Source: a virus. From it: a DNA stretch of 64,000 nt. This document shows, in pieces, positions 1,732 to 59,313 of the stretch. Under the pieces are notes generated by a model. The model was not told where the DNA came from, did not search any database, and saw only the letters and a program-made list of their open reading frames with translations. A program made the translations under genes and the position numbers. The stretch spans positions 62,001 to 126,000 of the IMG/VR virus record IMGVR_UViG_3300027708_000022. The stretch is one strand, 5' to 3'. Each line of letters begins with the position of its first letter. The stretch's first letter is position 1.

Positions 1732-2631
1732 TTATTTTGTGTCTGCTAGTGAATTAAAGTAATCCATTTCTTCATCGGCTTCAGCAACAACTTTCTTATC
1801 AAGTGCAGCTAAGTCCTCTTCTTTAAATGAATCTAACACAGCAGTTTCCGCCTTAGTTCTAGGATTTTCAACACCTGCGAAACCAAGAACCTTATCGAGG
1901 CGAGCTTTGAGTACATCATAAGATTTAAACTGTCCCTTCTCTGTGAATTCTTTTAGTGAGAATTCTTTCTTCCAGAGAGCTTCAAGTTTTTCATCGTCAC
2001 CATCAAACAATGCAGACATACCAGCAAATTCTGACTTGTCATAGTTGCGATAACCTTCAACATTACGAATCTTCAATTTGAAGTTAGCACCTTCCCACAT
2101 ATCAAATGGGTTAACTGGTGATTCATCAGCAAATTCTGGATTCATTGCTTCGGAAATCTTATCGAAAATCTTTTTACCAAACTTATAGAGTTTGATTTGA
2201 CCTTCGTTTTCTGGATTGCTTGGGTCAGAAAGAACCAAGATATTAGCCATGTAAGTCAACTTACGTTTCTGTTTACGGACAATCTCTTTGTTGGCTTCGA
2301 TGCCTGAATTCCAAAGAGTGCTGTTGTGTTCACAGACAGGACATTTATCGTTTAATGTTGTCAAGCAGTTGTCAATAAACCAACCGCCAGGTCCCTGAAA
2401 ACCATGACTGAAAGTACGAACCCAAGGAAGAGCATCATCACCGTCTACAGCAGGTGCAGGCAAGAAACGAATCTGTGCCATACCGTTACCTGATTTATCT
2501 ACTGATGGTTGCCAAAGGCGGGTGTCATCTTTTGAACCGGCTTCTGAAGAACCGGATTGAGTATCGTTGATTGCTTTGGTGAGTTTGTCCAAAGAACTAC
2601 GATCACGTTTTAAATTTGCGAAATTCGACAT
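1732..2631 (-). CDS. 32: Single-stranded DNA-binding protein, T4 gp32 family
   Basis: 299 residues, close to T4 gp32 (301). The OB-fold core contains SGNGMAQIRFLPAP, matching the T4 NAGNGQAVIRFLP region. A zinc site is visible as a His in RTFSHGF plus three Cys in DNC...CPVC. The C-terminus is acidic (EADEEMDYF), as needed in this family for recruiting replication partners. The N-terminus is basic. It coats ssDNA during replication, recombination and repair. The start has GAGGTAA as ribosome site. It is next to gp59, gp33 and dsbA as in T4. Confidence 0.97.
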   Translation of the reverse strand: MSNFANLKRDRSSLDKLTKAINDTQSGSSEAGSKDDTRLWQPSVDKSGNGMAQIRFLPAPAVDGDDALPWVRTFSHGFQGPGGWFIDNCLTTLNDKCPVCEHNSTLWNSGIEANKEIVRKQKRKLTYMANILVLSDPSNPENEGQIKLYKFGKKIFDKISEAMNPEFADESPVNPFDMWEGANFKLKIRNVEGYRNYDKSEFAGMSALFDGDDEKLEALWKKEFSLKEFTEKGQFKSYDVLKARLDKVLGFAGVENPRTKAETAVLDSFKEEDLAALDKKVVAEADEEMDYFNSLADTK

Positions 2632-2690
2632 TTTTTATTACCTCGTATTTAATGTATGTTAATGTATATTTTTTATCCACATGATGCATG

Positions 2691-2704
2691 ATATACTAGT
2701 ATAT
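2691..2704. promoter_or_regulatory. Palindromic -10-like element in the gp32 leader
   Basis: A perfect 14-bp palindrome ATATACTAGTATAT lies 60 bp upstream of gp32. On the minus strand it contains TATACT in the context GCATATATACTAG, which is shared word for word with the leader promoter near 23420. No good -35 is present, so this may be an activator-dependent middle promoter or a gp32 operator. Confidence 0.35.
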
Positions 2705-2733
2705 ATGCTTCTTCCAAGTGGGTGGATCACAAC

Positions 2734-3327
2734 TCATAATATAACCTTCTTCAAAATCAACTTGTATTTTACATCATCTAGCATAAGAAATGCGGCATAC
2801 TTGGTCAATTTCATTTCATATTCTGGCCATCGGATAGTATCCGTAATTCTTTTGTTCCACATGGGCAAGAAATTAAGGATTCTGTTTAGGATGATTAGTG
2901 TCTCTGGAGATATCTCTTTACGCAAAGCTTTAGTTAAGAGTACTGGATAGTCTCCATTCGTCACCAAAACATCGTTTGGATTCTTACAGACTGAGAACAA
3001 GTTTCTACATTCATTTTCAAAGGTATAAGACATTGATTGTATAACCTTCTGTCTTTGCCTATAGATAATTTCACACTCTTCACCTAGTAGAGTGCCAACC
3101 CAAACTTTGCTATCTTCCAAAAGATTAGCCACAAGAAAATTGATGTAATCATCTTTAATTGGATGTTTACGGGATAACTTGTAGAAGTGGAATTTATCCT
3201 TACGATTTTCAAACGTAATAACGCTGACGTTACTTTTCCCATTATATTTTAGATAGTCATAAGATTTTTGGGTAAAATGTAACTTGAGTCCGTTGTATAT
3301 AGAGAAGGCTTCATAACCTGTCATCAT
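2734..3327 (-). CDS. 59: Loader of DNA helicase, T4 gp59 family
   Basis: 197 residues (T4 gp59 is 217). DKFHFYKLSRKH followed by INFLVANLLEDSKVWVGTL aligns well with T4 gp59 DKYFFQKLSEKY and FISNLVANQDAWIGDI. A later region with FENECRNLF matches the T4 FEEDIRNIY segment. The family loads the gp41 replicative helicase onto gp32-coated forks. The position between gp33 and gp32 is the T4 order. It overlaps the gp33 end by four bases. Confidence 0.9.
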   Translation of the reverse strand: MMTGYEAFSIYNGLKLHFTQKSYDYLKYNGKSNVSVITFENRKDKFHFYKLSRKHPIKDDYINFLVANLLEDSKVWVGTLLGEECEIIYRQRQKVIQSMSYTFENECRNLFSVCKNPNDVLVTNGDYPVLLTKALRKEISPETLIILNRILNFLPMWNKRITDTIRWPEYEMKLTKYAAFLMLDDVKYKLILKKVIL

Positions 3328-3557
3328 ATTGGTAATCGTGGACTTTTATTCTTCAGTAAGTTAAATTCAATTGCATTACATTCAATTTTGCCTTTAAGGT
3401 TGGCGTTAATTAATGTTGATGCTACCTCGATTTCCAATCCAGTCTTTCTACAGTATTCAACGATAGCCTCAATGTAATTGTAGTCGGTACCAGAAACCAT
3501 TTTTTCAATCTCTACTGCAAACTTCATCATTTCATCCTTAGTTGGCATTATTTTCAC
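3324..3557 (-). CDS. 33: Late-promoter transcription coactivator, T4 gp33-like
   Basis: 77 residues. The core IEKMVSGTDYNYIEAIVEYC resembles T4 gp33 IEKMVEEFGMSYLEATTAFL, and the C-terminal KIECNAIEFNLL matches KIQSEAIDENLL. In T4, gp33 bridges RNA polymerase, the gp55 late sigma and the sliding clamp. The protein is shorter than T4 gp33 at its N-terminus. Synteny between dsbA and gp59 supports the call. TATAAATA late promoters elsewhere in the window fit its presence. Confidence 0.85.
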   Translation of the reverse strand: MKIMPTKDEMMKFAVEIEKMVSGTDYNYIEAIVEYCRKTGLEIEVASTLINANLKGKIECNAIEFNLLKNKSPRLPI

Positions 3558-3826
3558 TTAACAATTGTTTCATATAACGATTCAAATTGTTCATGAGTAG
3601 CAACTTCTTCATCAAAGTTTTGTCTATGATAAACCTTAACTAATTTGCTAACCAATCGTTTAGGTAATTGCAGGTCTTTTGCAATGGCGGCTACAGACTC
3701 TTTGATATAGTCCTTTTCACCTTCCATTCGTGTCATTGCACCAGAACATTCTTTGAGAACATCCAACAATTTCTTTTGATCTGCTGGATTAGAAATCTGA
3801 TTAACACTCAATTGTACTACAGCCAT
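3554..3826 (-). CDS. dsbA: Double-stranded DNA-binding protein DsbA-like
   Basis: 90 residues, versus 89 in T4 DsbA. The C-terminal half LVKVYHRQNFDEEVATHEQF matches T4 LLALYHKDNRDVFEAETEEV. DsbA binds dsDNA and enhances late transcription in T4. It is the first gene of the dsbA-33-59-32 set and overlaps gp33 by four bases. An upstream ribosome site GGAG is present. Confidence 0.85.
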   Translation of the reverse strand: MAVVQLSVNQISNPADQKKLLDVLKECSGAMTRMEGEKDYIKESVAAIAKDLQLPKRLVSKLVKVYHRQNFDEEVATHEQFESLYETIVK

Positions 3827-3861
3827 AATATAACTCCTGTTTAATTATAAAAAAAATATGA

Positions 3862-4512
3862 TTAGTCCCAAAGACCTTCGTAATACTTACCAAACAGGCG
3901 AAATCCGTTTTCTTTGCGCTTTTGCCAAGCCTTTAAACCAACCCAATCTACCTTGAGTTTACTTTGATAGTTACTATCATTATCCCAAGGAAATTTATCA
4001 TCACATTCAGAGTGGTCAAAAAATCTACCTTCGGCATCATCATCAACTTTCTGTTCAAATGCCCAAATCATTTCATCAAGAACCCATTCCCATCGAGCAT
4101 GAATATTTGGATAATCATCGTCATATGATTTATCTTCTTTATAAAAATCAAAGACGGATTGTTCTTCATACTCTTGTGTACCTGTTGTACGCAGGTGCTC
4201 AGGAACATCCTCAAGGTCAACAAAAGGTGAACCGTGTTTGGTTGCTTTAAGCTGCTTAAGCATTGGTAAAATGATTGGTGCTAGAGTGCTATCCATACTC
4301 CAAGTATCCCAATAATCAATCTTCGCATAGTCGATCTTTGGATGTACTACATCAAGGACTTTTCGGAGAGCTTCACAGATTGGATTTAGGCGGTCAGACC
4401 ACTTATCAATAAGCGGTTCTTTATAGTCAATCTCACGCCAGAAGAATACTTTCTCCAGTATGGTGTAAGGACTTAACCAATGGTTTCGGTATTTGTTGCT
4501 ATACACACGCAT
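3862..4512 (-). CDS. Conserved phage protein of unknown function
   Basis: 216 residues, rich in Trp, Asp and Tyr, with DTWSMDSTLAPIILPML and a C-terminal LKAWQKRKENGFRLFGKYY segment. It looks like a family widespread in large phages, but no catalytic motif is evident and I cannot give a function. The ribosome site AAGGAT precedes the ATG. Confidence 0.75.
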   Translation of the reverse strand: MRVYSNKYRNHWLSPYTILEKVFFWREIDYKEPLIDKWSDRLNPICEALRKVLDVVHPKIDYAKIDYWDTWSMDSTLAPIILPMLKQLKATKHGSPFVDLEDVPEHLRTTGTQEYEEQSVFDFYKEDKSYDDDYPNIHARWEWVLDEMIWAFEQKVDDDAEGRFFDHSECDDKFPWDNDSNYQSKLKVDWVGLKAWQKRKENGFRLFGKYYEGLWD

Positions 4513-4576
4513 TATTTTTTATCCTTACAAAAATTGAAATGACAGTTTTTCAACAGAACTGCCAAACTGAATTAAA

Positions 4577-5023
4577 TTAGAACTTGTACTTGATACCCGC
4601 AGTGATGACACTACCATTAAATCGAGTAACGCCAGATTCAGCATATTGATATGCATAGTCAAGTGTTCCTGCAACCGACTTTGTAAATGGTACAGTCAAA
4701 CCGAGACCAACAGTCCCTGCTGAACCACTTGTAGCGCTTTGATTGTTGAGGTATACATAACCAACTTTACCAGCAACTACCAAACTGTTCGTAGTATATA
4801 AATCATATGAGCCAGTAAGAGACCAACGATTCTGAGTAGAACCATTTAACCATGCTTGACCATATCCAGCTTCTAAACCTAGTTTGTCAAATTTCTGACC
4901 AGCGGTAACACCAGCTAAACCACCTGATGCACTACCAGTAACAGCACCACCATTAACACCAACTTCAAAAGCAGCTACGTTAAATGCTGCCAAAAGTGTT
5001 GCAATCAAAAGTACTTTTTTCAT
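4577..5023 (-). CDS. Exported outer-membrane beta-barrel protein
   Basis: 148 residues. A clear signal peptide (MKKVLLIATLLAAFNVAA) is followed by alternating amphipathic strands rich in Gly, Tyr, Ser and Thr, ending in KYKF with the C-terminal Phe that Gram-negative barrels use for BAM-dependent insertion. The size suits an 8-strand barrel such as OmpX or OmpW type. A phage-encoded outer-membrane barrel could block or alter receptor use (superinfection exclusion) or change permeability. That role is inferred from location only. It is monocistronic, with a hairpin (GTTAGGTT/AACCTAAC) in its leader around 5050-5081. Confidence 0.8.
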   Translation of the reverse strand: MKKVLLIATLLAAFNVAAFEVGVNGGAVTGSASGGLAGVTAGQKFDKLGLEAGYGQAWLNGSTQNRWSLTGSYDLYTTNSLVVAGKVGYVYLNNQSATSGSAGTVGLGLTVPFTKSVAGTLDYAYQYAESGVTRFNGSVITAGIKYKF

Positions 5024-5095
5024 TTATAAACTCCAAAGTTAATAAGAATGTTAGGTTATTATGATACAGGGTCAACCTAACAAAAACCCAACAAA

Positions 5096-5332
5096 TTATT
5101 TCGAATCAATAAATTTATAAAGTTTGTTTGCTTTTTCTAGAATCTTTTCTTCTGTTGGAAAATCAGGAAATCCAGGATGTGATGGTGGTGTAGTATTATT
5201 TTCCCGAGCGGTGGTAACCTGTGTATGAAAATTCTCATCAATTACCTGTCGTTTGCCATAATATTCATCATTAAGCATTCCTGCGGCCATCTTCAAAACT
5301 TCTAAACGCACTTCATATGGATTTAAACTCAT
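5096..5332 (-). CDS. Small conserved phage protein
   Basis: 78 residues, starting MSLNPYEVRLEVLKMAAGML and ending in a charged helix. Proteins with this N-terminus occur in T4-like marine and freshwater phages, with no known function. It lies directly downstream of the tmRNA, with ribosome site AAGGAG, so it may be cotranscribed with it. Confidence 0.7.
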   Translation of the reverse strand: MSLNPYEVRLEVLKMAAGMLNDEYYGKRQVIDENFHTQVTTARENNTTPPSHPGFPDFPTEEKILEKANKLYKFIDSK

Positions 5333-5374
5333 TTTACTTCTCCTTAGTGTGTGTAACTACTGTGTGTGTAAAGC

Positions 5375-5672
5375 GATAGTTGATTCTGTTTCCAAGTTCA
5401 ACTATCAAAACTCAGATGGTTATGCTTACGCAGCCATCAAAAAGCGATTATCGTTTGCTTTTATAGTTTTTTACTTTTAGCGACTATCTGTGTCGAGTTG
5501 TCCATTCCGTTACTTGTTGCCCAATCGAAACCTGGTCAGCCCATCAAAAGCATACTCGATCGTTTCCTGTCTTATCAATCTTATGACACCAAGTATGCTT
5601 TTGGTGGAGCTGGAGGGAATCGAACCCTCGTCTTGAACACTTTTCTCTTTACTTCATACAACTATACAACCA
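5375..5672 (-). ncRNA. ssrA: Permuted two-piece tmRNA (ssrA), tag ANDNRFLMAA
   Basis: Read leftward, the acceptor piece comes first. It has a T arm GAGGG-TTCGATT-CCCTC (5629-5613) and CCAGCTCCACCA ending at 5602. An intervening segment follows whose ends form a perfect 10-bp stem (5592-5601 with 5547-5556). Then comes the coding piece, starting GGGCTGACCAGGTTTCGATT (from 5542), which matches the canonical tmRNA 5' end and pairs with CAGCTCC. The tag frame GCA...TAA at 5458-5426 encodes ANDNRFLMAA. A 9-bp hairpin (5375-5383 with 5398-5406) closes the 3' side. The order acceptor-spacer-coding is the circular permutation of two-piece tmRNAs. With SmpB it would rescue stalled ribosomes. The ends are approximate. 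Confidence 0.93.
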
Positions 5673-5679
5673 TTATATA

Positions 5680-6360
5680 TCACTTCACGATTTTAGTCAA
5701 TGGTGAATTCGCTAAAAACGACAATAATTGGGTACGGTACATATACTTTTGCCTAACAAAGATTTGTGGTTGCCCGCCTTCTACTGCAATGGCAACAACT
5801 ATAGTATCAATTGTTTTGTTAGTTAATTCCTCAAACATTTCAGCATAAGCCGTACATTGTAGGAAATAATTTAGAATGTTTTCTTCCAACTTTTCTTTTG
5901 ATGAGGACTTATAATCTATGATTGATAACCTTTTATTCCATTCTGCAATAGTATCAACACGACCAGCAATTCTCAGCTTGTCAGAATAAAGTGGTTGTTC
6001 AATTGCATATATCTTACCGATATTTTTATCCAATTCAGGACGCAATTGAAAAAACAACTCTTTAATATTTGGCATCATATTGCGAATTTTTAAATCACTC
6101 ATTTCATTGAGCAAATATTTTTCACAAGCCAAATGCAATGCTTCACCTCGGCGTGAGGCACGACCTGATACTTTATTGGCTTCTTCTTCACCAACTCGGT
6201 TACGCCATGCATCAATAGCACCTTTGTTCATAGACCCAAGTACTGTTGTTACTGACGGGTATGCTTTGCCTGAAGGTGTATAATATAACCGACCAGATTC
6301 TGTTGTCTTTGCTTCCATCTCAAAATCTAATTCAGGTAACTTCTCATGTGTGAAAATCAT
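5680..6360 (-). CDS. PD-(D/E)XK exonuclease, RecB/MGME1-like
   Basis: 226 residues. Motifs in order: an RGEALHLACE helix, IAGRVDTIAEW (Asp), LSIIDYKSS (D-x-K catalytic pair) and a QCTAYAEMFEEL helix (Q-xxx-Y motif). This is the RecB/Cas4/MGME1-type nuclease core, used by T4-like phages in DNA processing or recombination. The N-terminal SGKAYPSVTTVLG is also typical. It lies just upstream of the tmRNA acceptor piece and its stop is eight bases before the proposed RNA. Confidence 0.88.
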   Translation of the reverse strand: MIFTHEKLPELDFEMEAKTTESGRLYYTPSGKAYPSVTTVLGSMNKGAIDAWRNRVGEEEANKVSGRASRRGEALHLACEKYLLNEMSDLKIRNMMPNIKELFFQLRPELDKNIGKIYAIEQPLYSDKLRIAGRVDTIAEWNKRLSIIDYKSSSKEKLEENILNYFLQCTAYAEMFEELTNKTIDTIVVAIAVEGGQPQIFVRQKYMYRTQLLSFLANSPLTKIVK

Positions 6361-6680
6361 CTATTTCTTGTTCTTTTAGTAATGCGGTCAACGTGCTTTT
6401 TAACTACTTGTGAGGTTCTAACTTCTTTGATAGATTTTTTATAATATCTTTCACCAACGGTACTGCTAGGGTGTGCCTCTGCAACCTTTGATAAAACTTC
6501 TTTCCATCCATCACCAGCCTTTTGGTCTGGAGTTCCACCTGAAGATGAAACGATAGCAGGTGCTGTCATCACAGTTTCAATATGTGGATTTTCAAGAAGA
6601 TACTTTTCTCTTTCTGATATCTTCATAAAAGATTCAAAAACTTCACTTGTCTTGGTATCAATAAATCTATAAGTTGGCAT
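6357..6680 (-). CDS. Conserved phage protein (MPTYRF family)
   Basis: 107 residues from the ATG at 6680, chosen because CCGGAG sits nine bases upstream; a longer upstream frame lacks such a site. It starts MPTYRFIDTKTSEVFESFMK and has a conserved WKEVLSKVAEAHP block, a family common in T4-like cyanophages and relatives. It resembles FmdB-type proteins at the N-terminus but lacks the zinc cysteines. Function unknown. It overlaps the previous gene by 14 bases. Confidence 0.8.
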   Translation of the reverse strand: MPTYRFIDTKTSEVFESFMKISEREKYLLENPHIETVMTAPAIVSSSGGTPDQKAGDGWKEVLSKVAEAHPSSTVGERYYKKSIKEVRTSQVVKKHVDRITKRTRNR

Positions 6681-7230
6681 TAAACCACTCCGGTACAGGA
6701 CGACTATTAACCTTGCCTTTCCATGATGCAAGGTGTTGCTTATTACTTATGTAATAATTCCTGTAGGATGCCAAAGAATTACCTGCAATTTTAACATCAT
6801 CAGGCATAGCAGTTGTAGGTTCTGTGAAACCAGTAAGTGCAATATTATCAGGTACCATATCATGTAACATCTGTACTAATCCATCACGCTCACATTTATG
6901 GACTTTACCATAGCGATAGGTATATTCTTTACATAATTCAACTAAAAGGTTTGATAACCAAAAATAGTTACCAACAGAATGTCTCACCCAAACAGCGGAA
7001 GGATGATTAATGTGAGTTGCACTATACATAACAGATTCACGAGCATCCGGTAAAATCCATCTTTTGACATTGCGACCAGTAAAAGATTTTTGTACAGATT
7101 CATCACCATCTAAAACTCGATGAGCAGTGGAAAGAAGCTGACAATATTCTAATATCATTTTAATGGTGTGTTTGTCATTGTGCATTTCGGCACAAAGCTT
7201 AGGATCATGGTGTAAGTAAAAAATGTTCAC
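6667..7230 (-). CDS. Conserved phage protein with His-rich N-terminal motif
   Basis: 187 residues from a GTG at 7230, whose GTGA overlaps the TGA of the preceding 41-residue gene and implies translational coupling. The N-terminus NIFYLHHDPKLCAEMHNDKH and the following KMILEYCQLLSTAHR are strongly conserved in many large phages. His, Asp and Glu clusters suggest a metal site, but no enzyme family is certain. It may be a nucleic-acid enzyme by context (next to a nuclease). Confidence 0.78.
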   Translation of the reverse strand: MNIFYLHHDPKLCAEMHNDKHTIKMILEYCQLLSTAHRVLDGDESVQKSFTGRNVKRWILPDARESVMYSATHINHPSAVWVRHSVGNYFWLSNLLVELCKEYTYRYGKVHKCERDGLVQMLHDMVPDNIALTGFTEPTTAMPDDVKIAGNSLASYRNYYISNKQHLASWKGKVNSRPVPEWFNANL

Positions 7231-7352
7231 TTCGCTTGAACCCACTTACGAACAACATCGGTCAAACCTTGATGGTCATAGATTGGGGTAACACTCGGTT
7301 GGAAAACATCAAACATTTTTTTCCATAGAATCTGATAATTAAAATGATACAT
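7227..7352 (-). CDS. Small conserved-type ORF, 41 residues
   Basis: The ORF fills the gap between its neighbours exactly, has AGGA ten bases before its ATG, and ends in a TGA that overlaps the next start. The peptide begins MYHFNYQILWKKMFDVFQ and is rich in aromatics. Function unknown. The tight coupling is the main evidence that it is translated. Confidence 0.6.
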   Translation of the reverse strand: MYHFNYQILWKKMFDVFQPSVTPIYDHQGLTDVVRKWVQAK

Positions 7353-7372
7353 TTGAAATCCTATTGCGTGGG

Positions 7373-7750
7373 TTAAACTGATTCTTCAATTTTAGTAACT
7401 GTAATTGTTTCAGGTTCTTCGGCCTTAGGCAATTCGGTTGCTTTCAACTCTTGCAAACTAGCAACAGGTTTTTCTGCTGTAGTATTGTGTATGCCAGCAC
7501 GGCGCATATATTGTTTCAATTCATCAACATTCACTAGCTGGTAGCCAGCAACTTTACGACCGTCTTTGATAACTTTAATTATACCACGCATTTTTGTTTT
7601 GATTGCCCACATATAGGTCGACAATTTATACATTTGAATTTGGTCACCCAAGAGGATCCCAATTTCTTCCGTTGTTACAACCTTACCAGAAATCATTACA
7701 GTTAATACTTTTTGGGTATGATTCAACCTAACTGTTTTTACTTTTGCCAT
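7373..7750 (-). CDS. Small basic protein, possible DNA-binding regulator
   Basis: 125 residues from the ATG at 7750; the upstream TTG start would include the ribosome site GGAG itself. The body is a basic alpha/beta domain (VKTVRLNHTQKVLTVMISG, then LLGDQIQMYKLSTYMWAIK), followed by a Pro/Glu-rich tail. The order of helices could be a winged helix, but this is only a guess. Confidence 0.6.
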   Translation of the reverse strand: MAKVKTVRLNHTQKVLTVMISGKVVTTEEIGILLGDQIQMYKLSTYMWAIKTKMRGIIKVIKDGRKVAGYQLVNVDELKQYMRRAGIHNTTAEKPVASLQELKATELPKAEEPETITVTKIEESV

Positions 7751-7794
7751 TATATAAAACTCCAATTTAATTATTAATAACTACCATGGTATCA

Positions 7795-7826
7795 CAATAC
7801 TGCCTGTAAGTCAAGCAGTCTTTCGG
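7795..7826 (-). promoter_or_regulatory. Sigma70-like promoter upstream of the 7750 gene
   Basis: The minus strand has TTGACT about 17 bp before GATACCATGG in the same spacing as the strong early promoters, but with a poor -10. A weaker member of the set. Confidence 0.35.
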
Positions 7827-7829
7827 CAA

Positions 7830-8057
7830 TCATCGGTAATATACCGAAAAACGATTGGCGAAATCTTTCAGGCAATCCTGCATACGTTGATGGCGTGGCC
7901 GAATATCAGAAAAGCAGGTTCGTGGCCCACGATACCGAATTCGGAACTTCTTGCCTTTTTTACGCAATAGCGTTTTCACTTCATCAAGGTATTCAATAGG
8001 AACATTTTTGTACCGTGCCATTTCACGATAATTCACGAAAGGGGATAAATTCATCAT
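7830..8057 (-). CDS. Hypothetical basic protein
   Basis: 75 residues, strongly basic (KTLLRKKGKKFRIRYRGP), with two Cys. Its ATG overlaps the stop of the GP88-family gene (ATGA), so it is cotranslated with it. No family recognised. Confidence 0.65.
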   Translation of the reverse strand: MMNLSPFVNYREMARYKNVPIEYLDEVKTLLRKKGKKFRIRYRGPRTCFSDIRPRHQRMQDCLKDFANRFSVYYR

Positions 8058-17623: not shown

Positions 17624-19030
17624 TTAGACCTTGTATCGGTCAGACATAATGGCTTTCAACATGATAGCTTCTGGAGTAAACTCTGAAGTATCTGCTGCAA
17701 GAATTGCTTTAACGATTGAAGGACTGAACCCTGAAACCAAAGCAACACCTGATTCATCATGCTTAACAGGTACGTTATCTGATGAATTGATATTCCAAAA
17801 AACAACTTTAGGAACTTCATAGCCATTTGAGGCGAATTGACGAGCAATCATCTCCATGGCCGAATCATCATGTTCTACGCAAGCATTGAATTGCATATCA
17901 GACAGAATCAACAGCATTGATGGCATATCTTCCTGTGGTACTTTGCCTTTTACAGCAACATTTAAAATCTTCATCATGGCTTTCACCAAGTCAGTAGACA
18001 TACCCCATTCGGATCTAACCATTTGATCCATCTTCTGAATGACATTACCTTTTAGGTTAAGCAATTGCGGATCACTTGAGAATGTTAAAAAGGTGTCTTT
18101 GAAAACTCCTTTGTTCTTATCTGCAAGGTATAGACCAAGAGATACAGAAACATCCATACATGATACTGAACTGTTACGACCAGCAGGGCATGACATAGAA
18201 CCAGAAACGTCAACTAAAGGTAATACATTCGCATCACCAACAAAATTCTCTAAAGCATCCCATTGGGCTACAATGTGGTCTTTTTCGGTTTTGTTGTATG
18301 AACCGTATGCTACGCCTTTCAATACATCATAAGGGAATACTGCACCAGCATTCACCTTAACTTTTGGATCGGTACCTTTAACCAATTCAGCCACATACTC
18401 CGCAAACTTTTCAGTATTACGGTAGAATGCTTTCTTGTAACGGCTAGCCGCCAAAGAAGGCACATGACTGAAATTGATGTTATCCCAATCCTTAGCACAC
18501 ATTTGAGATTCTACCACTTTAGTCATTTCAACCAAAGACTTACGATAGAACTTAGGTGTCATGCCGAAGAACTCACGCAATTCACGAGCAACTTCACCTT
18601 TGCGGGGTGTCCATTTTGCCGCCAATCCGTTTTTAGCTCTCAGAGCATCACCAAGCAAAGTGTATGCTTGTGACTTCAATTCAGAAGTCTGGAAAACAAA
18701 TAGGTCATCCCAACGACCAACTTCAGGTACTTTCCCAAGTAGCTTCATTGCCAAATCAGGACGATTGGTTTCCAAATACTTCAGAATCTGGCGAAACAAC
18801 TCACGCTCGCCAGCGCCACCACGAACATCACGAGACCATAAGGCAACTCGCAATGCTAATTCTTCATCCTGCACCAAAGCAGAAACGAAGTCAGCTGTGA
18901 TATCTTTACCGCGGCTGGCACCGATTTTATAGAACAAATCAACTACAGCATTAGCAGTAGATTTGCGAGCTTTCATACCATTGTCGGTACGAGCTTCTTG
19001 ATTTTGAACTGCGTTTACAAATGAATTCAT
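17624..19030 (-). CDS. Ro60-like RNA-binding protein (TROVE/DUF2828-type repeats plus vWA)
   Basis: 468 residues. The N-terminal half has helical-repeat sequence with the conserved ALWSRDVRGGAGERELFRQI block of the TROVE/DUF2828 superfamily. The C-terminal half is a von Willebrand A domain: LPLVDVSGSMSC gives the MIDAS DxSxS, and SMLLILSDMQFN the later Asp. Bacterial Ro binds Y RNAs and misfolded RNAs and works with exonucleases. It lies inside the tRNA island, and two repeated hairpin elements (19053-19206) lie between the Gly tRNA and its start. Ribosome site GAGGAAG. DUF2828 and Ro proper cannot be separated without a profile search. Confidence 0.82.
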   Translation of the reverse strand: MNSFVNAVQNQEARTDNGMKARKSTANAVVDLFYKIGASRGKDITADFVSALVQDEELALRVALWSRDVRGGAGERELFRQILKYLETNRPDLAMKLLGKVPEVGRWDDLFVFQTSELKSQAYTLLGDALRAKNGLAAKWTPRKGEVARELREFFGMTPKFYRKSLVEMTKVVESQMCAKDWDNINFSHVPSLAASRYKKAFYRNTEKFAEYVAELVKGTDPKVKVNAGAVFPYDVLKGVAYGSYNKTEKDHIVAQWDALENFVGDANVLPLVDVSGSMSCPAGRNSSVSCMDVSVSLGLYLADKNKGVFKDTFLTFSSDPQLLNLKGNVIQKMDQMVRSEWGMSTDLVKAMMKILNVAVKGKVPQEDMPSMLLILSDMQFNACVEHDDSAMEMIARQFASNGYEVPKVVFWNINSSDNVPVKHDESGVALVSGFSPSIVKAILAADTSEFTPEAIMLKAIMSDRYKV

Positions 19031-56872: not shown

Positions 56873-57178
56873 TTAACAATTCCATTTTCTTAGTGCTTTA
56901 TTAATACGGCTATCAGGATCTCTGGCGGTTTCAGCAGATGTGAGTTTTGATTTCATGCCACCCATTCTGGCACAAAATGATTTGCGGCGATTTGCTGATT
57001 TAGAACCTGGTTTCAACTTAGAAGGTTTAGTAGTAACTGCCATTGAAAGTTTTGAACCTGGATTATCACGGCGATATGATTCAATACCTTTACGATTCAA
57101 ACCACCTGCCTCTGATTTACCTTCTTTGCGAGTCCATGCAGGAGAGGCCTCAGCAATAAAATCTCTTAGTCTTTTCAT
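56873..57178 (-). CDS. DUF6321-like small basic protein
   Basis: 101 residues. AWTRKEGKSEAGGLNRKGIE, KPSKLKPGSKSANRRKSFC and ALRKWNC are the signature of this family, seen in T4-like phages and giant viruses. Basic; perhaps DNA-packing. Confidence 0.85.
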   Translation of the reverse strand: MKRLRDFIAEASPAWTRKEGKSEAGGLNRKGIESYRRDNPGSKLSMAVTTKPSKLKPGSKSANRRKSFCARMGGMKSKLTSAETARDPDSRINKALRKWNC

Positions 57179-59313
57179 GCTGCGTAATTCCTTTTACGGA
57201 AAGAAGTTAGGTTGATACCAACTTTCTTTAGTTCATCTTCTTTTTGGTCACCAATAGATGCCGTAGTTTCATCACCTTGTATTTCTTTAAATGGTTTCAG
57301 TTTGCCATTCTTGTCATAATTATCACCACCACCACGACCAAGACTTTCTCCAGATTGTGCCATCGAAAGTCCTGGTTCAATACTCATATCTATAGCTTCG
57401 GTAATGGCTTTTTCTTTTTTGGCCCGGATTTGTGCGAGGGTGATTTTGGTTTTGGACTTGGAGATTTCTTCGGTGATGGTTTCGCTTGAACCACTGGCTC
57501 TTCCACCGGTACTATTGGTATGACGTATACTGGCGCCGACACTTCCAAAACGGTCGGTGATTGAACTTCTTTCTTCTTGAATAGACTCATTAGTTTCTTT
57601 AGCATTTGGATTTCCTTTGATTTTGATAACATAAACTTTACCCATTGGATAAACAACACCATCATGTGTATGGGCTTCTTTAGCAGCAGAACGGCGTAAA
57701 ATGAATGTTCTTACTTTACCGGTTTTATCTTTCAATAGCTGACTATAATTTGAGTTAGAATATTCATTTATTTCTTCAAATGATTCATTAAAGAAACTTT
57801 CAAATTCTTCGTTAACTTTCTTAGTCACAGGTGCTTGCACTGGTTGTAGTTTATCATGTACTGAACGGTGTGTAACTTTATTGTCTTTACCGTAGCGACC
57901 AAAACCATAATAGTCCAAACCTAGTTTACGAGCTTCTTCTGCGGCCTTTGAATCTGGATGTGGTGAGGTCTTTGCGTCTTTCTTTGATACGGTAAGACTG
58001 TCTTTCTTTTGCAATTCAGCAGAAACCCACTCTCTAGCCTGTTTGCTTTTTGGTGGTGTACTTACAAACTTTTGTATTTGTTTGTAAAGGTCCAGCATTT
58101 CTTTCTTTTTAGCCTTAACAATATCAGGGTGTGCTGAGCGCAAATCTTCTGAATTATCAAACTCAGTATAATTTTCACCAAATATTTTTGCTAAATCTGG
58201 TCTTGCATTTTGCACAGACTGCCATTTCTCTCTTCTAAGGTTCTCTGGTACTGTACGACCACCACGTTGTCCACGTTCAACATTACGCATGGATGATACA
58301 TCATCTTTAGTATTAATTAAAACCATTGAAGTATCATAACCTAATTCTTCTAGGCGACCTTTGATTTTCTTAATTTTCTCTGGATCATCACCAGTACCAT
58401 TGATGATAACACCATTACGACCATGCAAAGCAAGACGCTCTCTCAATTCGGTTATACTCTTTGCTCTACCACGAGTAATATCACGTTCAGTTTTTTCAGA
58501 ATCAGGCATGGTTTTATTCAGACCCTGCTTGTCCATAAGATATTCAAGTGCTTTATCTGAATTGATTTCTGTTAGACCATGACCTGAAAGTGTGTTATCA
58601 AGAATATAATCTTTACCTGAACCTGGACCACCCGCTAAGAATACAGCCTTAAAGATGGCCTTATCATGTACACCTTCAACCAACAATTCTTCAAATGATG
58701 CATCAACATCTTCTTTAACACCCATGTGGTGACGTACATCATTGTACAATTCTTTTGCATGGTGTTCTGGTACATGACTAGGAACACCCTTCTTGAATTC
58801 ATTGAAGTTACCACTAGAAGCGTGTGCTCGCATTTTCGAAGCAGACATACCTTCTGCACCTTCGGCATCAGGGTCTCTCTCACCTGCGGAGTGTACTTTT
58901 ATGTGTTTAAAATTAAACAATGCACCTTCGTGGGTGCCATTGTATTTGTGTAACAACTTGTGATATTCTCCAGTGCGGTCTGAACCAGCAACCATGTGTA
59001 GGTGTGTCACACCTTGTTTGTGGAGTTTTGCAGCTTGTGTTAGGAAGTTTGGATGTTCTTTGTTCGATACTGTAATATTAGTTTTCGGAAAGAATCTTTT
59101 GGCGTGTTTGAATTTTGTTTCTGATGATAGAGGATTCTTCGTCTTATCCTGCGAATGCGATAAGACTACATGATGTGAAGCATTATGCTCTTTGGCAATT
59201 TCTTTTACTTTATCAACCAGTTTACCGTGACCGATTGTTGGAGGATTCATACGACCAAAGGCCAATACAGCGTGATTGTCCTTTGATTCTCTAATAAATT
59301 CTTTAAACTTCAT
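57175..59313 (-). CDS. Nucleotidyltransferase-kinase fusion protein
   Basis: 712 residues. Residues 1-190 are a cytidylyltransferase-like fold: LAFGRMNPPTIGHGKLVDKV holds the HxGH-type site (TIGH) and GVTHLHMVAGSDRTGEYHKL the second motif. Residues about 215-400 are a P-loop kinase: AVFLAGGPGSGKDYILDNTL, then INGTGDDPEKIKKIKGRLEE, as in zeta-toxin/AAA_33 kinases. The rest is Lys-rich with late-type modules. It may modify or salvage nucleotides or NAD precursors. Late promoter upstream. Confidence 0.82.
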   Translation of the reverse strand: MKFKEFIRESKDNHAVLAFGRMNPPTIGHGKLVDKVKEIAKEHNASHHVVLSHSQDKTKNPLSSETKFKHAKRFFPKTNITVSNKEHPNFLTQAAKLHKQGVTHLHMVAGSDRTGEYHKLLHKYNGTHEGALFNFKHIKVHSAGERDPDAEGAEGMSASKMRAHASSGNFNEFKKGVPSHVPEHHAKELYNDVRHHMGVKEDVDASFEELLVEGVHDKAIFKAVFLAGGPGSGKDYILDNTLSGHGLTEINSDKALEYLMDKQGLNKTMPDSEKTERDITRGRAKSITELRERLALHGRNGVIINGTGDDPEKIKKIKGRLEELGYDTSMVLINTKDDVSSMRNVERGQRGGRTVPENLRREKWQSVQNARPDLAKIFGENYTEFDNSEDLRSAHPDIVKAKKKEMLDLYKQIQKFVSTPPKSKQAREWVSAELQKKDSLTVSKKDAKTSPHPDSKAAEEARKLGLDYYGFGRYGKDNKVTHRSVHDKLQPVQAPVTKKVNEEFESFFNESFEEINEYSNSNYSQLLKDKTGKVRTFILRRSAAKEAHTHDGVVYPMGKVYVIKIKGNPNAKETNESIQEERSSITDRFGSVGASIRHTNSTGGRASGSSETITEEISKSKTKITLAQIRAKKEKAITEAIDMSIEPGLSMAQSGESLGRGGGDNYDKNGKLKPFKEIQGDETTASIGDQKEDELKKVGINLTSFRKRNYAA

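What the first reader, a model, noticed from the sequence alone, without database searches (positions are those of the whole stretch)
5375..5672. Phage-encoded circularly permuted two-piece tmRNA
The minus strand shows acceptor piece, then a spacer closed by a perfect 10-bp stem, then the canonical tmRNA 5' end and a tag frame (ANDNRFLMAA). Seen directly: T arm, CCA, GGGCTGACCAGGTTTCGA start, tag with TAA. Known: one-piece tmRNAs occur in some phages, while permuted two-piece forms are known from alphaproteobacteria, some betaproteobacteria and cyanobacteria. A phage carrying the permuted form is unusual and gives a strong host clue.
Basis: partly seen in the sequence, partly recalled or inferred. 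Interest (0 to 1): 0.93.

Follow-up and report, generated by a model that had tools for sequence, protein, structure and literature searches.

The report
Phage permuted tmRNA with mosaic parts
A T4-like phage from environmental sequence carries a rearranged two-piece version of the bacterial RNA that frees stuck ribosomes. Such phage genes are already known, but in this phage's relatives the RNA's throw-away linker often holds a tiny protein gene, which I have not found described.

Summary
Minus strand 5663-5426 matches Rfam tmRNA_permuted (118.9 bits, cut-off 47), and 5714-5369 matches beta_tmRNA (92.4, cut-off 84). It has its own sigma70-type promoter and the open tag ANDNRFLMAA. A phage carrying the permuted form is not new: a 2022 survey (PMC9004378) already lists 53 two-piece phage tmRNAs. 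The gene's type is a poor host clue.

One G is absent from the acceptor 5' strand (UGGGCUG against CAGCUCC), leaving a U1·C72 mismatch. It is the only imperfect stem among 57 tmRNAs not selected by acceptor sequence. It may be real or an assembly error.

Of 79 IMG/VR records with the neighbouring exonuclease, 59 carry a permuted tmRNA. Helices covary strongly, and even 97%-similar phages swap acceptor pieces, linkers and tags.

The new point lies in relatives. In 41 of 51 distinct linkers of at least 130 nt, the excised segment holds a protein gene (0.6 expected). Its Shine-Dalgarno often sits in the processing stem, its stop often at the RNase P site, and homologues evolve under purifying selection. 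The window's 58-nt linker is empty.

The parts
5672..5700 (-). sigma70-type promoter TTGACT-17-TATAAT, overlapping the end of the exonuclease gene
   Evidence: 11 of 12 consensus bases, the best site of the region. Promoter-like sites with at most 2 mismatches: 59 of 192 upstream regions of relatives against 8 of 192 shuffled, with a peak 59-61 nt upstream of the acceptor 3' strand.
5602..5663 (-). acceptor (3') piece: pairing segment, P2 strand TGTTCAA, T arm, acceptor 3' strand CAGCTCC (5612-5606), A73, CCA (5604-5602)
   Evidence: RF04321 alignment starts at 5663; sequence read directly; P2 and T-stem pairing
5544..5601 (-). intervening (excised) linker, 58 nt, closed by a 10-bp stem; holds no ATG and no ORF ('empty slot')
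   Evidence: stem 14 pairs, 0/200 shuffles; linker length 58
5426..5543 (-). coding (5') piece up to the tag stop: acceptor 5' strand U1 GGGCUG (5543-5537), D-loop analogue ACCAGGTTTCGA, P2 strand TTGGGCA, tag frame
   Evidence: RF04321 1-213 complete; U1.C72 mismatch
5426..5458 (-). tag reading frame ANDNRFLMAA + TAA
   Evidence: read directly; the same tag in L017-L019, and called by ARAGORN in L018
5375..5413 (-). 3' hairpin GATAGTTGA/TCAACTATC with loop ACTTGGAAACAGAA; probable pseudoknot GAGTT:AACTT replacing the GGGG:CCTT of relatives
   Evidence: sequence; minimum-energy fold of 5365-5675 shows the 9-bp stem, z = -2.89; pseudoknot inferred by eye
5680..6360 (-). flanking exonuclease gene (PHROG 298), used as the synteny anchor
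   Evidence: E = 1.3e-65
5096..5332 (-). downstream 78-aa gene, no family
   Evidence: homologues in 76 tmRNA-bearing loci; no PHROG

Best explanation
The locus is a circularly permuted (two-piece) beta-type tmRNA gene of a T4-like phage. Shown by sequence: promoter; acceptor piece; linker closed by a stem; coding piece with an ANDNRFLMAA tag; 3' hairpin; covarying helices; an Ala-type G3.U70. Inferred: the phage promoter makes one precursor; host tRNA-processing enzymes (RNase P, tRNase Z) release the two pieces, which pair into a tRNA-like domain; host AlaRS charges it; host SmpB (none was found in the phage record) brings it to stalled ribosomes; and the tag sends the nascent chain to host proteases, so ribosomes stay available during infection. 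In this copy a one-base deletion leaves U1.C72 next to an intact G2-C71/G3.U70 core, so it is probably still chargeable but may be weakened. At family level the gene is a fast-recombining mosaic, and its discarded linker is a slot that in many relatives carries a separate mini-gene whose ribosome-binding site lies inside the processing stem.
For: RF04321 118.9 bits and RF01850 92.4 bits. Virus record of 162,042 bp, with T4-like helicase loader and ssDNA-binding protein nearby. In 42 non-redundant phage tmRNAs, paired cells: acceptor 293/294 (shuffle maximum 255), T stem 210/210 (maximum 181), P2 287/294 (maximum 240). G3.U70 in all 57 tmRNAs not selected by acceptor sequence, over 12 different stems; PMC3985003 calls this pair completely conserved in tmRNA. 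Tags in all 73 parsed phage tmRNAs begin AN and end AA or VA. Linker stem. Promoter. ARAGORN calls the permuted form in 25 of 26 relatives. SmpB absent from the record. Close relatives L017-L019 keep the same tag with another acceptor piece.
Against: The acceptor stem of this copy is imperfect and ARAGORN rejects it. RF01850 is only 8 bits over its cut-off. No transcript, processing or tagging data exist. CheckV completeness was not given for the record, so smpB could lie in a missing part.
Confidence: 0.8

Rival explanations
1. This particular copy is a recently broken or non-functional tmRNA: the missing G abolishes charging or RNase P cleavage, and the gene is decaying.
For: Only 1 of 57 tmRNAs not selected by acceptor sequence has a mismatched acceptor stem, and it is the window. 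ARAGORN does not call it while it of 26 relatives.
Against: All other helices, the promoter, the tag frame and the 3' hairpin are intact. G3.U70 and A73 are kept. Other tRNAs tolerate 1:72 mismatches (general knowledge, initiator tRNA).
Confidence: 0.2
2. The missing G is an assembly error and the real phage has a perfect GGGGCUG stem.
For: A G run is a plausible error site. All relatives parsed have seven pairs.
Against: No frame-breaking indel in the window's ORFs against L018 over 2243-7848, so the local assembly looks accurate.
Confidence: 0.2
3. The phage tmRNA acts as a decoy or inhibitor of host trans-translation rather than as a working tmRNA, as reported for the tag-less phage DS6A RNA.
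For: A precedent of an inhibitory phage tmRNA-like RNA is reported (PMC11915505).
Against: DS6A lacks a tag frame. Here every parsed phage tmRNA of the first set has an open tag ending AA or VA, and G3.U70 is strictly kept, which a decoy would not need.
Confidence: 0.08
4. Chance resemblance or a tRNA fragment, not a tmRNA.
For: Only that ARAGORN is silent on the window.
Against: Two full-length covariance-model hits, conserved synteny and covariation.
Confidence: 0.01

Closest known systems
Betaproteobacterial two-piece tmRNA (Rfam RF01850 beta_tmRNA; RF04321 tmRNA_permuted)
   Same: Gene order, tRNA domain, linker with terminal stem (also in bacterial copies), AND-type tag, G3.U70, 3' hairpin.
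   Different: Phage-borne with its own promoter; 58-nt linker, where most sampled beta-type bacterial linkers are 18-42 nt (part of that sample was chosen by linker length); LMAA tag end; one-base defect in the acceptor stem.
Two-piece tmRNA of phage Melnitz and pelagimyophages (PMC9004378)
   Same: Phage-borne permuted tmRNA with an early-type promoter in a T4-like genome; in Melnitz it lies just upstream of the late-transcription coactivator; here a transcription-regulator gene (phrog_639), a helicase loader and a ssDNA-binding gene lie shortly downstream.
   Different: Melnitz type is alphaproteobacterial and associated with a glutamine riboswitch; no riboswitch was found here.
tmRNA genes with coding inserts: homing endonuclease genes in group I introns, and one tRNA-Ala inside a permuted intervening sequence (PMC11915505)
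   Same: A removed segment of pre-tmRNA carries another gene.
   Different: The linkers of this phage family carry tiny protein genes, with start and stop set at the processing stem and the RNase P site; the passages read of that survey report no protein gene in a permuted linker.

Membership tests
Permuted (two-piece) tmRNA, RF04321 | Full-length match over the curated cut-off | tested here: met
   118.9 bits against 47, positions 1-213
Permuted (two-piece) tmRNA, RF04321 | Acceptor piece upstream of coding piece with an intervening segment | tested here: met
   CCA at 5602, linker 5601-5544, coding piece from 5543
Permuted (two-piece) tmRNA, RF04321 | Acceptor stem of 7 positions with at most one mismatch | tested here: met
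   6 of 7 pairs, U1.C72 mismatch. The 2025 curators corrected or rejected only stems with two or more mismatches. A perfect 7-bp stem, as in every relative parsed, is not met
Permuted (two-piece) tmRNA, RF04321 | G3.U70 alanine identity pair, A73, CCA | tested here: met
   UGGGCUG/CAGCUCC ACCA: G3.U70 kept
Permuted (two-piece) tmRNA, RF04321 | T arm and P2 helix | tested here: met
   GAGGG/CCCTC; TGTTCAA/TTGGGCA, both complementary and covarying across relatives
Permuted (two-piece) tmRNA, RF04321 | Open tag frame with resume codon and stop | tested here: met
   ANDNRFLMAA, TAA at 5428-5426
Permuted (two-piece) tmRNA, RF04321 | Transcript cut into two pieces | not testable with these tools
   Needs RNA ends from infected cells
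Permuted (two-piece) tmRNA, RF04321 | SmpB-dependent tagging of stalled chains | not testable with these tools
   No smpB in the phage record; host factors would be needed
Betaproteobacterial subtype, RF01850 | Match over the curated cut-off, better than alpha and cyano models | tested here: met
   92.4 bits against 84, full length; best of its clan
Nested linker gene (seen in relatives) | ORF spanning the intervening segment | tested here: not met
   The window linker has no ATG; relatives L022/L023 and L188/L197 do have such ORFs

The most novel reading that the evidence does not exclude
In this phage family the discarded linker of the permuted pre-tmRNA is a gene slot. It carries interchangeable tiny protein genes (about 23-65 residues) whose Shine-Dalgarno is paired inside the processing stem and whose stop is often the TGA of the conserved TGAT just before the RNase P site, so one precursor yields two tmRNA pieces and a mini-mRNA, and ribosome entry and tmRNA maturation may control each other. 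The probability given is for the linker ORFs being real, translated genes; that translation and maturation control each other I put at about 0.4.
Probability: 0.85. Interest if true: 0.8.

Novelty: new variant of a known kind. Interest (0 to 1): 0.6.

Why it matters
Phage tmRNAs are easily taken for captured host copies. This family shows one under its own selection in phages: acceptor stem, linker and tag are swapped between near-identical genomes while the alanine identity pair and the helices are kept, so the RNA must work. If the linker genes are translated, a structured RNA precursor doubles as a messenger, with its processing helix as a possible translation switch. That is directly testable by mapping RNA ends and ribosome footprints, and it offers a set of natural acceptor-stem variants for asking what trans-translation does for a phage.

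Tried and rejected
(1) ARAGORN on the window gave no tmRNA, but this is no evidence against, since two covariance models hit. (2) No close isolate phage: megablast of 17.7 kb found nothing. (3) My first IMG/VR pattern scan found nothing because its gap was too short for the 59-nt linker. (5) A tree of phage and bacterial permuted tmRNAs is poorly resolved (36 of 81 inner branches drawn open) and needs 5 phage/bacteria changes; with a mosaic gene I draw no direction of transfer from it. (6) Acceptor-stem diversity as a phage-specific arms race: rejected as the default, because bacterial genera also differ (Cupriavidus GGGCCTG, Advenella GGGGACG, Gallionellaceae GGGGATG). (7) Very long split linkers (up to 3 kb) in the loci my parser had missed: none found. 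(8) Linker mini-proteins: Pfam gave no match over a cut-off; of 10 tested against PHROGs, one clearly matched a family, phrog_1679, of unknown function; none of three tested occurs in isolate phages. (9) Scans fixed acceptor bases including U70, so their G3.U70 counts are not independent; only the protein- or similarity-anchored loci (57 with the window) are used for that claim. (10) Papers: no held paper joins permuted tmRNA, intervening and open reading frame; the library lacks most subscription journals.

Full report
CHECK OF THE OBSERVATION. On the minus strand the sequence reads in order: a sigma70-type promoter TTGACT-17-TATAAT (5700-5672; 11 of 12 consensus bases); an acceptor piece ending ...GAC GAGGG TTCGATT CCCTC CAGCTCC ACCA at 5602; a 58-nt linker closed by AAAGCATACT/AGTATGCTTT; a coding piece starting TGGGCTGACCAGGTTTCGA (5543 on); a tag frame GCA AAC GAT AAT CGC TTT TTG ATG GCT GCG TAA (5458-5426, ANDNRFLMAA); and a 3' hairpin (5406-5375). 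Rfam's tmRNA_permuted matches over its full length with 118.9 bits (cut-off 47) and beta_tmRNA with 92.4 (cut-off 84). The record is a 162,042-base IMG/VR virus sequence in which the window is 62001-126000. No smpB was found in it.

The acceptor stem is imperfect: UGGGCUG faces CAGCUCC, so U1 meets C72, while G2-C71, G3.U70 and pairs 4-7 are intact. Relative to kin (TTTTGAT GGGGCTG), one G of the run is missing. Among the 57 parsed tmRNAs that were not selected by acceptor sequence (the window, 54 exonuclease-linked IMG/VR loci, two isolate phages), the window is the only one without seven pairs (the parser itself asked for at least six). ARAGORN calls the permuted gene in 25 of 26 relatives, with the same tag ANDNRFLMAA in L018, but not in the window. 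Against L018 the window shows no frame-breaking indel in its ORFs over 2243-7848, so the deletion may be real; reads would decide.

HOW COMMON AND WHERE. The gene sits directly after an exonuclease gene (PHROG 298). Of 79 IMG/VR records carrying a relative of that exonuclease, 59 hold a full permuted tmRNA over the cut-off, as do isolate phages ON615601 (listed host Synechococcus) and OK149171 (host Alcaligenes). Shortly downstream lie genes with PHROG matches to a transcription regulator (3554-3826), a helicase loader (2734-3327) and a ssDNA-binding protein (1732-2631). That resembles the setting in Melnitz, whose tmRNA lies just upstream of the transcription coactivator.

SELECTION ON THE RNA. 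In 42 non-redundant phage tmRNAs, pairing is 293/294 in the acceptor stem (best of 1000 partner shuffles 255), 210/210 in the T stem (181) and 287/294 in P2 (240), with up to five or six pair types at single positions. A few of these rows came from a scan that fixed acceptor bases, and the parser asked for most pairs of the acceptor and T stems, which makes those two counts generous; P2 was not used by the parser in this set. G3.U70 is present in all 57 unselected members over 12 different stems. Tags always open AN and close AA or VA; LMAA, RMAA and RIAA ends recur in several phages, so the window's LMAA is not a lone error.

MOSAICISM. L017-L019 (exonuclease 97% identical) share the window's tag half (86% over the 3' part) but carry a different acceptor piece (62%), T loop (TGCAAAT), stem (GGGGGTG/CACCTCC) and linker. 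L020 shares the acceptor piece (97%) but has another stem (GGGGAAG/CTTCTCC), linker and tag half (58%). Whole blocks are exchanged while pairing is restored each time. Bacterial genera likewise differ in stem, so exchange with bacterial or other phage copies could supply the variants; the tree cannot decide direction.

THE LINKER AS A GENE SLOT (relatives, not the window). Scans for longer linkers, with loci fetched just before, gave 173 more parsed permuted tmRNAs. Clustering all phage linkers at 80% gives 143 clusters. Of the 51 clusters with linkers of at least 130 nt, 41 carry an ORF that starts with ATG 3-24 nt after the CCA and stays open to the last bases or beyond; dinucleotide shuffles give 0.6 on average, and reverse-complemented linkers none. 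Start offsets peak at 10-13 nt. The commonest stop is the TGA of the conserved TGAT that directly precedes the coding piece; others stop 11-13 nt earlier or run into the coding piece. A Shine-Dalgarno core lies in the first 14 nt of 36 of 60 ORF linkers but only 2 of 64 other linkers of at least 80 nt and 0 of 19 short ones; its distance to ATG is mostly 4-7 nt. It is paired in the processing stem with probability about 0.9. Of 58 homologous linker-ORF pairs, 57 have more synonymous than non-synonymous change per site, for example L022/L038 pS 0.88, pN 0.18; many of these pairs share members, so they are not independent. L204 shows the design at a glance: CCA-TAAGGAGATTAGT-ATG ... CTC TTA TGA-T-GGGCGAG. 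One family (MKYKIVVK...) is nested in 15 of 18 loci and free-standing in two. Another, in L051's linker, is a common free-standing phage gene (none of the 80 best hits is nested; one lies just upstream of the tmRNA in L030/L435). So small genes seem to move in and out of the slot. The window's relatives use it: L022/L023 (exonuclease 92% identical) hold a 32-residue hydrophobic ORF, and L188/L197, with the same 52-base motif of the coding piece, an ORF of 43 residues within the linker (62 in all). The window's own linker has no ATG.

MECHANISM. Shown: the anatomy, covariation, alanine identity pair, promoter-like site and conserved tag. Inferred from the tmRNA literature (PMC3985003): RNase P and tRNase Z cutting, alanine charging, EF-Tu and SmpB delivery, template switch to the tag. 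Likely benefit: rescue of ribosomes stalled on broken messages during infection. For the linker genes, the simplest model is that the precursor, or the released linker, is also a messenger; because the ribosome-binding site is in the processing stem and the stop lies at the RNase P site, translation and maturation could compete. This last step is untested.

PRIOR KNOWLEDGE. Phage two-piece tmRNAs are known (PMC9004378: 53 among 133 phage tmRNA structures). The 97,179-sequence survey PMC11915505 lists 79 phage sequences, notes a tRNA gene inside one permuted intervening sequence and homing genes in group I introns, and reports no protein genes in permuted linkers in the passages read. I therefore rate the window's gene a new, slightly defective member of a known kind, and the family's linker genes a new variant.

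Noticed in passing
L118, L119, L123, L124, L153 (Herbaspirillum): Permuted tmRNAs with tags ending AYGT instead of LAA (ANEPQFVAYGT, ANDSQFLAYGT). Of these genomes only that of L118 was checked for others, and it also carries a standard one-piece tmRNA.
   Followed up: partly
L115, L130, L151 (Stenotrophomonas): Accessory permuted tmRNAs with odd long tags (e.g. ANADYYDQDEEVILRVA) in genomes that also carry a standard one-piece tmRNA.
   Followed up: partly
L102, L131, L137, L147 (Cupriavidus pinatubonensis HN-2): Four permuted tmRNA loci in one strain, two of them on plasmid p2: the beta-type permuted gene looks mobile.
   Followed up: no
order search: Only 14 of 300 genomes of the order searched gave a strong permuted hit, although the search scored few candidates per genome; the permuted form looks patchy in this order.
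   Followed up: no
window 17624-19030 (-): 468-aa protein with DUF2828 and DUF7788 (PHROG 850 'RNA-binding protein') inside the phage's tRNA array (25 tRNAs in the window).
   Followed up: partly
L017-L019, L027-L029 tmRNA: The acceptor piece ends ACCT, not ACCA, and has a TGCAAAT T loop, so CCA would have to be completed after transcription.
   Followed up: no
L464:1400-1500: A copy of the MKYKIVVK mini-gene preceded by what looks like a degraded tmRNA acceptor piece (CTTCCTCACCAAAAGCAAATT): the slot may outlive the tmRNA.
   Followed up: no
window 57175-59313 (-): 712-aa protein with cytidyltransferase-like PHROGs at the N-terminus and a zeta-toxin/AAA_33 kinase-like domain after it.
   Followed up: no
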